Source: Thermoleophilaceae bacterium (GTDB lineage Bacteria; Actinomycetota; Thermoleophilia; Solirubrobacterales; Thermoleophilaceae). Taken from it: a stretch of DNA of 51,808 nucleotides. Below the pieces are notes generated by a model, which searched no databases, was not told where the DNA came from, and saw only the letters and a list, made by a program, of their open reading frames with translations. Made by a program: the position numbers and the translations under genes. The stretch lies in the NCBI GenBank assembly GCA_040901445.1, contig JBBDYQ010000023.1, positions 8,605 through 60,412 of the forward strand. Direction: 5' to 3'. Each line of letters begins with the position of its first letter. The first letter of the stretch is position 1. Of the stretch, positions 37,995-42,528 are shown piece after piece.

Positions 37995-39989
37995 ATGGAC
38001 CGCCTCGTCCGCGGGGCCTGCCCGCACGACTGCCCGGACACCTGCGCCATGCACGTGAGCGTGGACGACGGCGGGCGCGCCACCAGGGTGGCGGGCGATC
38101 CCGAGCATCCGGTGACGGCCGGGTTCCTCTGCGGGAAGGTGTCGAACTACCTCGACCGCGTGTACGCGGAGGACCGGCTGCTGCACCCGCTCGTGCGCGA
38201 GGACGGCGACTTTCGGCGAGCGTCCTGGGACGAGGCGCTCGACCGCGTGGCGGCCGGCCTGCAAGGCGCGATCGATCGCCACGGCCCCGAGTCGATCCTC
38301 CCCTACAGCTACGCGGGCACGATGGGCCTGGTGCAGGGCAACTCCATGAGCGCGCGCTTCTTCAACGCCCTCGGGGCCAGCGAGCTGGTGCGCACCATCT
38401 GCGCCACCGCCGGATTGGCCGGCACGGCGGCGATCCACGGCCTCTCGCCCGAGGTGGATCCCGAGGAGTGGCCGCACGCGCGCTACCTGCTGGTGTGGGG
38501 CTGGAACCCGATGTCCACCGCGCCGCACCTGTGGCGCTTCATGCTCGAGGCGCGCCGGCGCGGCGCCGAGCTGGTGGTCGTGGACCCGTTCCGCAGCCGC
38601 ACGGCGCGCGTGGCGGACGAGCACCTGCGCCCGCTCCCGGGCACCGACGCCGCGCTGGCGCTGGGGATGATGCGCGCGATCGTGGACGCCGGGCTGCACG
38701 ACGAGGACTGGTGCCGCGCCCACGCCACGGGCTACGACGAGCTGATCTCACGTGTCCACGAGCGCAGCACGGAGCACTGGGCCGAGCTGTGCGGCGTGCC
38801 GGCGGAGCAGGTGGAGCGGGCGGCGCGCGGGTTCGCCGGCACCAACCCCGCGCTGTTGCGCCTGGGCGTCGGCGCGCAGCGCCACGCGGGCGCTCCCGCC
38901 GCCTACCGCACGGTGGCCTGCATCCCCGCCCTCACCGGCGCCTGGCGCCGGCGCGGCGGCGGCTTCTCCTACATCCCCACGGCCACCGCGGGCGCCGTCT
39001 CGTCCCGGCCGCTGGAGCGCACCGACCTGCGGCCGGGCCCGGTGCGGACCATCAACATGTCGCAGCTCGGCGAGGCGCTGAACGGCGATCTCGACCCGCC
39101 GGTGGCGGCGCTCGTGGTGTGGAACTCCAACCCGGCGCAGGTGGCCCCCGACCAGGAGCGCGTGCTGGAGGGGCTTCGCCGCGACGACCTCTTCACCGTC
39201 GTGCTCGAGCAGTTCATGACCGACACGGCGGCCCATGCCGACGTGGTGCTGCCAGCCACCACCCAGCTCGAGCACACGGACGCCGTCTTCTCCTGGGGGC
39301 ATCACTACATGACCTGGAACGAGCGGGCGATCGAGCCGCTCGGCGAGGCCAGGACGAACAGCGACACGTTCCGGCTGCTGGCCGCGCGGATGGGCCTCGG
39401 CGACCCGTGCTTCTCCCAGACCGACGAGGAGATGCTGGCCGACACCTTCGCGCGCGGGCCGGTGCCGCTGGCGGAGCTGCGCGAGCGCGGCTGGGTGAAG
39501 ATCGACCTCGGGCAGGGCCCCGCCCCCCACGCCGAGGGCGGCTTCGGCACGAAGTCGAAGAAGGCGGACCTCGCGCTCGGCCCATACGAGCCGCCCGCGG
39601 AGGTGGCCGACGAGGCGCTGGCCGCGCGCTTCCCGCTCGCTCTGCTCACCCCCAAGACCCACCTCTTCCTCAACTCCACCTTCCCCAACCAGGAGCGCCA
39701 GCACAGCGCGCAGCCCGAGCCGTTCGTGGTGCTGCACCCGCGCGACGCCGTCCCGCGCGGGATCGACGACGGCGCACGCGTGCGGGTGTTCAACGACCGC
39801 GGCTCGTACCGCGTGCGCGCGCGGGTGTCCGACGACGCGCGCCGCGGCGTGGCCGTGGCACCTATGGGCTGGTGGAACCGCGACTACGAGGACGGGCGCT
39901 CGAGCCAGGTCACCACGCCGCAGCTGCTCACCGAGGACGGGGCGGCGCCTACCTTCAACGACAACCGGGTAGAGGTGAAGGCGTTGTGA
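37995..39989 (+). CDS. Molybdopterin-dependent oxidoreductase (formate dehydrogenase/DMSO reductase superfamily)
   Basis: The 664-residue protein has an N-terminal [4Fe-4S] motif CPHDCPDTCAM with a fourth Cys in GFLCGK. The bis-MGD binding domains follow (YLLVWGWNPMSTAPHLWRFM, LLRLGVGAQRHAGAPAAYRT, VVWNSNPAQVAPDQERV, ADVVLPATTQLEHTD). The C-terminal molydop-binding domain contains THLFLNSTFPNQER and RGVAVAPMGWWNRD. There is no Tat signal, so it is cytosolic. The substrate is unknown. A Cys in RTICATAG could be the molybdenum ligand, but this is a guess. It is coupled to the following glutaredoxin-like gene by a GTGA overlap. Confidence 0.9.
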   Translation: MDRLVRGACPHDCPDTCAMHVSVDDGGRATRVAGDPEHPVTAGFLCGKVSNYLDRVYAEDRLLHPLVREDGDFRRASWDEALDRVAAGLQGAIDRHGPESILPYSYAGTMGLVQGNSMSARFFNALGASELVRTICATAGLAGTAAIHGLSPEVDPEEWPHARYLLVWGWNPMSTAPHLWRFMLEARRRGAELVVVDPFRSRTARVADEHLRPLPGTDAALALGMMRAIVDAGLHDEDWCRAHATGYDELISRVHERSTEHWAELCGVPAEQVERAARGFAGTNPALLRLGVGAQRHAGAPAAYRTVACIPALTGAWRRRGGGFSYIPTATAGAVSSRPLERTDLRPGPVRTINMSQLGEALNGDLDPPVAALVVWNSNPAQVAPDQERVLEGLRRDDLFTVVLEQFMTDTAAHADVVLPATTQLEHTDAVFSWGHHYMTWNERAIEPLGEARTNSDTFRLLAARMGLGDPCFSQTDEEMLADTFARGPVPLAELRERGWVKIDLGQGPAPHAEGGFGTKSKKADLALGPYEPPAEVADEALAARFPLALLTPKTHLFLNSTFPNQERQHSAQPEPFVVLHPRDAVPRGIDDGARVRVFNDRGSYRVRARVSDDARRGVAVAPMGWWNRDYEDGRSSQVTTPQLLTEDGAAPTFNDNRVEVKAL

Positions 39990-40201
39990 GCGAGCGGATC
40001 ATGTACGTCAAGCCCGGCTGCCCCTACTGCGAGGCGGCCCGCGAAGGGCTCCGGGCCGATGGCCTGGACTGGGAGGAGCGCGACGCCAGCGCCGATCCGG
40101 CCTTCCGCGAGGAGCTCTTCCGGCACTCCAAGGACACCGGCATCGTGCCCACGATCGTGGCGCCCGACGGGGTGACGATCGGGTGGGACGGCAACGGCTG
40201 A
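39986..40201 (+). CDS. Glutaredoxin-like small redox protein
   Basis: The 71-residue protein has the redox motif CPYC at residues 12-15 after a first strand (IMYVKPG). A thioredoxin-fold core follows with the cis-Pro region TGIVPTIVAPDG and a closing VTIGWDGNG. It resembles short glutaredoxins or the UXX-star redox proteins. The GTG overlaps the molybdopterin enzyme stop (GTGA), so it is co-translated and may reduce or maintain that enzyme. It is too short to contain a second domain. Confidence 0.85.
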   Translation: MSERIMYVKPGCPYCEAAREGLRADGLDWEERDASADPAFREELFRHSKDTGIVPTIVAPDGVTIGWDGNG

Positions 40202-40247: not shown

Positions 40248-41840
40248 ATGGAGTACCCCACAGAGACCTGGACGGAGGAGGAGCGCGCAGTGCTCGCGCC
40301 CCACTTCACGAGCCTCGACGGCCCCGTCTTCGCCCTCGTCAACCTGCCCGAGACGGTCAAGGGCGCCCTCTTCGCCCGCTATTCGCGCTACCAGGGCACG
40401 CTGCGCCGGCTGTTCCTCGAGGAGTTCGCGGGCGACCTGGAGGGCGGCGTGCGGGCCACGTTCGACTGCGCTGAGGGCCAGCGCGCCGCCGGGCTCTACG
40501 AGCGCATCTTCCTCGGCTACGGGGACGACTCCGTGGCCCAGCTCGGCGGGGCGCACGTGGCCATGGAGTGGGTCTCCAACGTGGTCACCAAGGTGCTTCA
40601 GCGCCCGCGGCTGGGCGCCTATCTGGAGCAGTCCACGCGCTACATCCCCTACGACGGGGCCATGCCCGGCGGCGGCTACCGCTACTGGCGCGACGCCTCG
40701 CTGGGCCCGGAGTACGCGCGGGCGATGGACTCGCTCTTCGACACCTACGCCGCCTGCCTGCCGCGCGTGGAGACGTGGGCGGCCGAGCGCTTCCCCCGCG
40801 CCGAGGGCGAGCCCGAGTCCGCGCACCGGCGCTCCATCCGCGCCAAGGCGCTCGACCTCCTGCGCGGACTGCTGCCCGCGGCCTCGCTCTCCCACATGGG
40901 CATGTTCGCCACCGGCCAGGCGTACGAGCAGCTGCTGCTCCACCTGCTGGCCTCGCCCCTGCCCGAGGCCCGCGAGTACGGCCGCATGATCCTGGCCGAG
41001 ATCAAGAAGGTCATGCCCAGCTTCGTCGCGCGCGTGGAGCGCCCCGAGCGAGGCGGCGAGTGGGTGTCGTTCCTCGAACAGCGCGAGGCGGCGGCCGACC
41101 GCTGGGCCGGCCGGCTCGGGCTCGACCGCGCCACGCGCGACGAGGACACGCGCCCGTCGGTCAAGCTGCTCGAGGTCCGCGGCACCGAGGACGACCTGCT
41201 GGCGGCCCTCCTGTTCGAGAGCTCCGCCGTCTCGGAGGACGAGGCGCGTGCCGCGGTGCGGGTGCTGCCGCCCGACGAGCGCGCGCAGATGCTGGCCGAG
41301 CTCGTGGGCGAGCGGGCCAACCGCCGCCACCGGCCGGGGCGCGGCTTCGAGTCGGTCTCCTACCGCTTCGAGATCGTGTCCGACTACGGCGCCTTCCGCG
41401 ACCTGCAGCGCCACCGCCTGATGACCGTGCAGTGGCAGACGCTCGGGCCGCACCTCGGCGCGGGCGTGCCGGCCGAGCTCGACGACGCCGGTGTGGGCGA
41501 CGCGTACCGCGAGGCGCTGGAGCGCTCGCGGGAGGAGCACGAGCGGCTGGTGGACGCCGGGCTGCCCAGCCTCGCGCCCTACGCCCTCTGCCTGGGCTAC
41601 CGCATCCGCTACGTGCTGGACATGAACGCCCGCGCCGCCATGCACCTCATCGAGCTGCGCTCCGGCCGCGAGGGCCATCCCGCCTACCGTGCGGTCGCGC
41701 ACGAGCTGCACCGCCAGATCGCCCAGGTCCACCCCGCCGTGGCCGCGGCCATGACCCACGTGGACTCCGACACCGAGCCGCGTCTCGAACGCATCCTCTC
41801 CGAAATTCGCACACACGCCCGCCAGGCACAGCGCGTCTGA
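40248..41840 (+). CDS. ThyX-like protein with two tandem FAD-dependent thymidylate synthase modules
   Basis: The 530-residue protein is about twice the length of a typical ThyX and appears to contain two ThyX-like modules. The first has RPR at 119-121 followed after seven residues by S129 (LQRPRLGAYLEQSTRY), so the ThyX motif RHRx7S has His replaced by Pro. The second has RHR at 388-390 followed after seven residues by T398 (RHRLMTVQWQTL), so Ser is replaced by Thr. The C-terminus has the ThyX-like NARAAMHLIELRSGREGHPA. ThyX makes dTMP from dUMP with FAD and folate; whether this long form does so is uncertain. It starts with ATG after a -10-like sequence. Confidence 0.75.
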   Translation: MEYPTETWTEEERAVLAPHFTSLDGPVFALVNLPETVKGALFARYSRYQGTLRRLFLEEFAGDLEGGVRATFDCAEGQRAAGLYERIFLGYGDDSVAQLGGAHVAMEWVSNVVTKVLQRPRLGAYLEQSTRYIPYDGAMPGGGYRYWRDASLGPEYARAMDSLFDTYAACLPRVETWAAERFPRAEGEPESAHRRSIRAKALDLLRGLLPAASLSHMGMFATGQAYEQLLLHLLASPLPEAREYGRMILAEIKKVMPSFVARVERPERGGEWVSFLEQREAAADRWAGRLGLDRATRDEDTRPSVKLLEVRGTEDDLLAALLFESSAVSEDEARAAVRVLPPDERAQMLAELVGERANRRHRPGRGFESVSYRFEIVSDYGAFRDLQRHRLMTVQWQTLGPHLGAGVPAELDDAGVGDAYREALERSREEHERLVDAGLPSLAPYALCLGYRIRYVLDMNARAAMHLIELRSGREGHPAYRAVAHELHRQIAQVHPAVAAAMTHVDSDTEPRLERILSEIRTHARQAQRV

Positions 41841-41890: not shown

Positions 41891-42112
41891 ATGAAGCGCA
41901 CGACGGTCTATCTCCCGGATGACCTCAAGCTCGCGCTGGAGCGCGCCGCCGCGGCGCAGGGCCGCAGCGAGGCGGAGCTGATCCGCGAGGGCGTGGGGCG
42001 GGTCACACTCGACTTCGAGCACCCGCCCCCGCGCGTCCCGCTCTTCGAGAGCGGCGATCCGACGCTTGCCGAGCGGGCCGAGGAGCTGCTCGACGGCTTC
42101 GGCGAACGGTGA
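41891..42112 (+). CDS. VapB-type ribbon-helix-helix antitoxin
   Basis: The 73-residue protein opens MKRTTVYLPDDLKLALERAA, the beta-strand and first helix of a ribbon-helix-helix fold, followed by GRSEAELIREGVGRV. The C-terminal half, rich in Pro and acidic residues, would wrap the toxin. The ATG at 41882 (three residues longer) is possible. It overlaps the PIN-domain toxin gene by 4 nt (GTGA), the usual antitoxin-first arrangement. Confidence 0.85.
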   Translation: MKRTTVYLPDDLKLALERAAAAQGRSEAELIREGVGRVTLDFEHPPPRVPLFESGDPTLAERAEELLDGFGER

Positions 42113-42528
42113 TCGTGCTCGACACGAGTGGCGTCCTCGCAGCGCTGGACGCGTCGCAACGCCACCACGCCGCGGCGGCCGCGGCGCTCGCGGCGGCCGG
42201 TCCGCCGCTCGTCCTGTCGCCCTTCGTGCTGGCCGAGCTCGACTATCTGCTTGCCACGCGCGTGGGCCGCGCGGCGCAGCAGGCACTGCTCGTGGAGGTG
42301 GCGCGCGGCGCGTACACGCTGGCGCCGTTCGGCGCAGGCGGCGTAAGACGCGCGATCGCGATCCTCGAGCGGTACGCCGATCTCGACCTCGGGCTTGCCG
42401 ACGCGTCGATCGTGGTCCTCGCCGAGCGGCACGGGACGCGCGATCTCCTGACCCTCGACGAGCGGCATTTCCGGGCGCTGCGCGCATCGCGCGGCCGCGG
42501 GTTCCGGCTTCTGCCCGCCGACGCGTAG
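42109..42528 (+). CDS. VapC-type PIN-domain ribonuclease toxin
   Basis: The 139-residue PIN-domain protein has the acidic catalytic set visible as D5 (IVLDTSGVL), E43 (FVLAELDYLL), D98 (LADASIVVLAE) and D117 (LTLDERHF). VapC toxins cleave RNA, often initiator tRNA or rRNA, when the antitoxin is lost. The start is GTG overlapping the antitoxin stop. All key residues are present, so the pair looks intact. Confidence 0.9.
   Translation: MIVLDTSGVLAALDASQRHHAAAAAALAAAGPPLVLSPFVLAELDYLLATRVGRAAQQALLVEVARGAYTLAPFGAGGVRRAIAILERYADLDLGLADASIVVLAERHGTRDLLTLDERHFRALRASRGRGFRLLPADA

What the first reader, a model, noticed from the sequence alone, without database searches (positions are those of the whole stretch)
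40248..41840. Double-length ThyX-like protein with complementary motif substitutions
Two ThyX-like motif regions about 270 residues apart each keep the seven-residue spacing of RHRx7S, but the first is RPRx7S and the second RHRx7T. Neither half has the complete signature. ThyX works as a homotetramer with shared active sites, so a fused two-module protein could build composite sites, or could have lost thymidylate synthase activity.
Basis: partly seen in the sequence, partly recalled or inferred. Interest (0 to 1): 0.6.

Follow-up and report, generated by a model that had tools for sequence, protein, structure and literature searches.

The report
Tandem ThyX with split active site
This bacterium makes the DNA building block thymidylate with what looks like a double-length version of the enzyme ThyX, in which each half has lost part of the active site so that only the two halves together could complete one; the same arrangement recurs, with one apparent origin, in many bacteria and large phages.

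Summary
The 530-aa ORF at 40248-41840 (+) holds two complete ThyX folds, and the family is conserved.

Mapped on M. tuberculosis ThyX, the C-terminal half keeps the flavin-side residues (R95-H96-R97, R199) but has lost S105/R107/Y108. The N-terminal half keeps S105/R107/Y108 but has lost the RHR motif and R199. In canonical ThyX these two sets meet in one site from two different subunits. The split holds in essentially all of 117 aligned tandem proteins from Thermoleophilia, Acidimicrobiia, Euzebya, Parabacteroides, Bacillus/Paenibacillus plasmids and large phages. A tree of the halves points to one ancestral tandem.

The host genome has no ThyA, no other ThyX, no DHFR and no TK1-type thymidine kinase. 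Across 149 class genomes the tandem form and the known thymidylate synthases exclude each other (Fisher p ~ 2e-27), and DHFR occurs only with ThyA.

Best reading: a working flavin-dependent thymidylate synthase acting as a pseudo-tetramer of two chains with two composite sites. Loss of activity is unlikely. Activity and assembly are inferred, not shown. Databases already call such proteins "FAD-dependent thymidylate synthase"; I found no paper describing the split site. New variant of a known kind.

The parts
40248..41840 (+). tandem (double-length) ThyX gene, 530 aa plus stop
   Evidence: conserved in 60 of 149 class genomes
40320..41033 (+). half 1: N-terminal ThyX domain (about residues 25-262), dUMP-side module
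   Evidence: AF2 of half 1 alone pLDDT 84.1, pTM 0.81; VIA-align Z 11.4 to Mtb ThyX 2af6 (203 aligned, rmsd 6.2) and 3gwc (195 aligned, rmsd 4.4); all of the top 47 rows are ThyX-fold entries, the next row is Z 4.5
40530..40532 (+). S95, equivalent of Mtb S71 (contacts FAD phosphates from a third subunit in canonical ThyX)
   Evidence: S in 116 of 117
40602..40610 (+). RPR (residues 119-121): degenerate RHR of half 1; H96 position is P or G in all 65 actinobacterial members
40620..40643 (+). YLEQSTRY (residues 125-132): S129/R131/Y132 = Mtb S105/R107/Y108, the dUMP-binding and lid residues
   Evidence: invariant 49/49 in the class; S and R 117/117, Y 112/117 overall
41118..41156 (+). linker between the two ThyX folds (about residues 291-303)
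   Evidence: between helix 266-289 and strand 304-311 of the model
41145..41777 (+). half 2: C-terminal ThyX domain (residues 300-510), FAD-side module
   Evidence: Z 15.9, rmsd 2.4, 193 aligned to T. maritima ThyX
41409..41417 (+). RHR (residues 388-390) = Mtb R95-H96-R97, FAD and dUMP contacts
   Evidence: R and H 117/117; third residue R in 109 of 117
41439..41450 (+). T398-L399-G400-P401: degenerate S-x-R-Y of half 2
   Evidence: position 398 not conserved; S in 5 of 117, R at 400 in 4 of 117, Y at 401 in 0 of 117
41625..41660 (+). N460 to R471: R471 = Mtb R199 (dUMP), R462 = Mtb R190 (FAD)
   Evidence: phmmer alignment; R471 117/117, lost in half 1 of all 117

Best explanation
It is a working flavin-dependent thymidylate synthase of the ThyX (Thy1) superfamily made as one tandem chain. 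SHOWN by sequence, modelling and genome survey: two ThyX folds in one protein; complementary loss of active-site residues; this loss fixed throughout a large family with one apparent origin; it is the only recognisable thymidylate synthase in its genome. INFERRED: two chains assemble into a pseudo-tetramer resembling the canonical homotetramer. Half 2 binds FAD through RHR 388-390 and supplies R471. Half 1 supplies S129, R131 and the Y132 lid over dUMP, and probably S95 to the FAD phosphates. There are thus two composite sites per pair of chains instead of four, and the two reciprocal positions (half 1 as flavin side, half 2 as dUMP side) are dead. Chemistry is inferred to be that of ThyX: a methylene from CH2-tetrahydrofolate passes through the flavin to dUMP and tetrahydrofolate is released, so no DHFR is needed.
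For: Two Thy1 matches and two ThyX folds. Published structures place R95 and R199 of one subunit opposite R87, S105, R107 and Y108 of another in one dUMP/FAD site, with S71 and R190 from a third (PMC6514825); T. maritima R78 contacts the flavin, and S88 and Y91 are critical for activity (PMC11940539). Residue mapping comes from direct alignment to Mtb ThyX. In 117 tandem proteins half 1 has S105 and R107 117/117 and Y108 112/117 but R199 0/117; half 2 has R95-H96 117/117 and R199 117/117 but Y108 0/117 and S105 5/117. Halves 1 and halves 2 each form one group on a tree, also with motif columns removed. The host genome (100% complete) has no ThyA, no second ThyX, no PF00186 DHFR and no PF00265 thymidine kinase, but has thymidylate kinase. 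Mutual exclusion with single ThyX or full ThyA in 149 genomes, Fisher p 2e-27. DHFR is found only in the 7 ThyA genomes and in 0 of 60 tandem genomes. Neighbours of distant homologues fit the pathway: dCMP deaminase in phage Tunturi_5, dCTP deaminase in Euzebya, DHFR in P. distasonis.
Against: No assay or multimer model. Model coordinates could not be read, so the distance between the two half-sites was not measured. R87 of the dUMP side is N111 in actinobacterial members, and H69 is D93. The FAD contact R190 sits in half 2 in actinobacteria but mostly in half 1 in phage forms, so which half plays the third-subunit role is unclear. The protein scores below the NCBIfam ThyX equivalog cut-off (52.3 against 87.9). 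A dNK-family kinase in the genome leaves some thymidine salvage possible.
Confidence: 0.8

Rival explanations
1. Inactive or repurposed ThyX pseudoenzyme: the fusion has lost thymidylate synthase activity and does something else, while dTMP comes from salvage or an unknown enzyme.
For: Neither half has the complete signature; score under the NCBIfam equivalog cut-off; the C. glutamicum ThyX shows that some ThyX proteins are dispensable (PDB 3ge9 title); a dNK-family kinase exists in the genome.
Against: Catalytic residues are nearly invariant, each in one half. No other thymidylate synthase in the genome and near-complete mutual exclusion with ThyA and single ThyX. No PF00265 thymidine kinase in any of the 28 tandem genomes of its own order.
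Confidence: 0.06
2. Composite-site enzyme of ThyX type but with another main substrate or product, such as UMP methylation (as in Streptomyces cacaoi PolB) or a modified pyrimidine in the phage members.
For: The top Foldseek hit is PolB, a UMP/dUMP methylase. Phage members are very divergent, and jumbo phages can make modified pyrimidines (PMC7824862).
Against: In the bacteria the protein replaces thymidylate synthase one for one. PolB's lead in the Foldseek list is negligible, and VIA-align ranks thymidylate-making ThyX entries higher (Z 15.9 against 14.6).
Confidence: 0.08
3. The two halves do not share sites: one half alone, using substitute residues, carries a non-composite active site and the other is structural.
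For: R121 (the second R of RHR) is retained in half 1 of all 65 actinobacterial members of the Thermoleophilia and Acidimicrobiia sets; half 2 has its own invariant residues (R359, R360, R365, D385, Q387, Q397) of unknown role.
Against: In both the plasmid/phage and the actinobacterial lineages each half keeps the set that the other loses. R121 is not kept in most phage forms.
Confidence: 0.06

Closest known systems
Canonical homotetrameric ThyX / FDTS (Pfam PF02511; M. tuberculosis, T. maritima, H. pylori)
   Same: Fold of both halves; key dUMP/FAD residues R95, H96, R97, R199, S105, R107, Y108 and S71 all present when counted over both halves; genomes without ThyA and DHFR
   Different: Two domains in one chain; neither domain carries the whole RHRx7S...SxRY signature; predicted two sites per pseudo-tetramer instead of four; R87 replaced by N and H69 by D in half 1 of actinobacterial members
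Proteins annotated 'FAD-dependent thymidylate synthase' or 'thymidylate synthase', about 490-565 aa (Euzebya pacifica, Miltoncostaea oceani, Parabacteroides distasonis, Bacillus licheniformis plasmids, Microcystis phage Ma-LMM01, Tunturiibacter phage Tunturi_5)
   Same: Same tandem architecture and same split of residues
   Different: Identity 22-44%; phage and Bacillus forms mostly keep H69 and R190 in half 1; Bacillus forms read RHNR in half 2
Thermus thermophilus Thy1 with an extra C-terminal domain (PDB 6j61)
   Same: ThyX with additional sequence; aligns with half 2 at Z 15.6
   Different: 270 aa chain: one ThyX domain, not a tandem
ThyA (PF00303)
   Same: Same metabolic step
   Different: Unrelated; absent from this genome

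Membership tests
ThyX/Thy1 superfamily (PF02511) | Profile match above the curated cut-off | tested here: met
   108.3 bits against 24.8, two stretches
ThyX/Thy1 superfamily (PF02511) | ThyX fold | tested here: met
   Half 2 Z 15.9; half 1 Z 11.4
Canonical ThyX (TIGR02170 equivalog) | Score over the NCBIfam cut-off 87.9 | tested here: not met
   52.3 bits
Canonical ThyX | RHRx7S signature within one domain | tested here: not met
   RPRx7S in half 1, RHRx7T in half 2; split fixed in 117 relatives
Canonical ThyX | Full set of dUMP/FAD residues present in the polypeptide | tested here: met
   Met only by adding the halves; exceptions R87 to N111 and H69 to D93
Canonical ThyX | Homotetramer with sites at the interface of three subunits | not testable with these tools
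   No multimer prediction available; inferred pseudo-tetramer of two chains
Canonical ThyX | FAD-dependent methylation of dUMP | not testable with these tools
   Needs an assay; genomic context agrees
ThyA (PF00303) | Thymidylat_synt profile | tested here: not met
   Only PF02511 hits the protein; no ThyA in the genome

The most novel reading that the evidence does not exclude
An ancient, monophyletic branch of ThyX, spread over several bacterial phyla, plasmids and large phages, whose flavin-side and dUMP-side half-sites were parted for good between two fused domains. These enzymes would be obligately pseudo-heterodimeric with half the usual number of sites, and would be the sole dTMP source of much of Thermoleophilia and probably of many Acidimicrobiia.
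Probability: 0.65. Interest if true: 0.7.

Novelty: new variant of a known kind. Interest (0 to 1): 0.62.

Why it matters
Thymidylate synthesis is essential. Here a second architecture for the flavin-dependent enzyme appears, hidden under the name of the standard one. Because each site needs one half of each kind, the protein is a natural test of which ThyX residues act on the flavin side and which on the nucleotide side. It lets single sites be mutated without changing all four, and it bears on whether ThyX subunits act independently. It also warns that motif-based calls (RHRx7S in one domain) miss or misjudge the only thymidylate synthase of many actinobacteria and large phages.

Tried and rejected
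Chance motif: the R.R.{7}[ST] pattern alone is not significant (expected 0.61 per shuffled protein), so it was not used as evidence. Conserved operon: the glutaredoxin gene upstream recurs near the gene in only 1 of 20 related loci examined, so it was dropped. Separate genes for the two halves: only fragments and short pieces were seen. Independent fusions in phages and actinobacteria: the trees do not support them, though several half-2 branches are very long. Literature: nine full-text searches, one on Ma-LMM01 and look-ups in seven papers found no description of a tandem or split-site ThyX; only open-licence papers are held, so this is weak evidence of absence. Leduc 2004 (PMC409905) was not held.

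Full report
What is there. The ORF at 40248-41840 (+) encodes 530 residues. Pfam finds only Thy1, in two stretches; the whole-genome search scores them separately at 6e-12 and 8e-17. The spaced motif alone would not be convincing (0.61 expected per shuffled protein). AlphaFold2 on a 40-sequence alignment gives pLDDT 87.7 and pTM 0.87 with the same order of secondary-structure elements twice. Half 2 (300-510) aligns with T. maritima ThyX at Z 15.9, rmsd 2.4, 193 residues. Half 1 predicted alone (pLDDT 84.1) aligns with M. tuberculosis ThyX at Z 11.4; the first 47 entries are all ThyX-fold proteins and the next row falls to Z 4.5. So there are two ThyX folds, not one.

Which residues each half keeps. 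Direct alignment to Mtb ThyX maps half 1 with an offset of 24 (R119 = R95, S129 = S105, R131 = R107, Y132 = Y108, S95 = S71) and half 2 so that R462 = R190 and R471 = R199. In solved ThyX, dUMP is held by R95 and R199 of one subunit and by R87, S105, R107 and the lid Y108 of another, while FAD is held by RHR 95-97 of the first and by S71 and R190 of a third (PMC6514825). T. maritima R78 contacts the flavin and S88 and Y91 are critical (PMC11940539). Half 2 therefore keeps the flavin-side set and half 1 the nucleotide-side set; each has lost the other set.

The split is a family trait. In 49 class relatives YLEQSTRY (125-132) and RHR (388-390) are invariant, while the RHR position of half 1 reads RPR, RGR or WGR and the S position of half 2 is anything. 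In 117 tandem proteins, including Acidimicrobiia, Euzebya, Parabacteroides, Bacillus/Paenibacillus plasmids and IMG/VR contigs, half 1 has S105 and R107 in 117, Y108 in 112, R199 in none. Half 2 has R95 and H96 in 117, R199 in 117, S105 in 5, Y108 in none. Some of these loci were fetched by patterns containing RDLQRHR or YLEQST, so conservation of the pattern used is partly by construction for those. The absence of RHR in half 1, the absence of SxRY in half 2, and the six records found by tblastn are not.

One origin. On a tree of 42 first halves, 42 second halves and 16 single ThyX, each group is one side of a branch (SH-aLRT 99, 97, 80). With the motif columns removed the same holds (97, 84, 94). 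Long branches among the phage second halves make details unsure.

It is the thymidylate synthase of its host. The genome (100% complete) has no other Thy1 and no ThyA, no PF00186 DHFR, no PF00265 thymidine kinase, but does have thymidylate kinase; a dNK-family kinase of unknown specificity is present. In 149 genomes of the class, 60 have the tandem form, 70 a single ThyX, 7 a full ThyA; the tandem overlaps a single ThyX once and ThyA never (Fisher p 2e-27; genomes of one lineage are not independent, so p overstates the number of events). In its own order, genomes without the tandem mostly carry a single ThyX instead. DHFR is found exactly in the 7 ThyA genomes, as expected if the tandem enzyme, like ThyX, returns tetrahydrofolate. 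Contig lengths that coincide between the searches identify members as Conexibacter arvalis, Patulibacter minatonensis and Miltoncostaea oceani, so the class is Thermoleophilia. The form is also common in Acidimicrobiia and is full length in roughly 115-120 of 396 phylum genomes.

Mechanism. I infer that two chains form a pseudo-tetramer with two composite sites: half 2 holds FAD and supplies R388 and R471, half 1 supplies the serine, arginine and tyrosine lid over dUMP. The reciprocal two positions lack both sets and should be dead. The third-subunit role (S71, R190) is less clear: in most phage forms half 1 keeps H69, S71 and R190, which suggests half 1 plays it; in actinobacteria R190 is Q224 in half 1 and R462 in half 2.

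Known or new. Databases already name such proteins FAD-dependent thymidylate synthase. I found no text describing the tandem form or the split site (searches listed under tried and rejected), in an open-licence library only. It belongs to the Thy1 superfamily but fails the tests of a canonical ThyX (one-domain signature; NCBIfam cut-off).

Noticed in passing
L087-L092 (single ThyX of G121, G142, G124, G139, G025, G055): In class genomes lacking the tandem form, four of them from its own order, the replacing single ThyX reads RHRAGSAFSQESLRY or RHRAGAAYSQESLRY, i.e. RHRx8S, one residue longer than the standard signature.
   Followed up: no
L094:354-2378 (-): A single ThyX with an insert beginning right after RHR (RHRIGCLPGDTVVTLV...), looking like an intein; the open frame is 675 aa.
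   Followed up: no
L068 and L082 (G122:C1 and G122:C2): One genome has two tandem ThyX genes, one on a contig of 815,643 bases that matches the Miltoncostaea oceani plasmid NZ_CP064357.1.
   Followed up: partly
L184 (NZ_OY725790.1): Parabacteroides distasonis carries a tandem ThyX of actinobacterial type (40% identity) close to a dihydrofolate reductase gene; the record is called a plasmid but its genes look chromosomal.
   Followed up: partly
G004, G016, G022, G034: Genomes of the class with neither ThyX nor a full ThyA, only a weak partial ThyA match; G004 and G016 have thymidine kinase. Their dTMP source is unclear.
   Followed up: no
39986-40201 (+): A 71-aa glutaredoxin gene (PF00462) ends 46 bases before the tandem ThyX gene; a similar gene lies near it in L105 but not in 19 other loci checked.
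   Followed up: partly
42109-42528 (+): PIN-domain protein (PF01850) downstream, preceded by a short ORF: a likely VapBC-type toxin-antitoxin pair between the ThyX gene and ribulose-phosphate 3-epimerase.
   Followed up: no
L122, L153 record titles: Metagenome bins labelled Bifidobacterium breve carry the tandem ThyX, and the label looks wrong.
   Followed up: no
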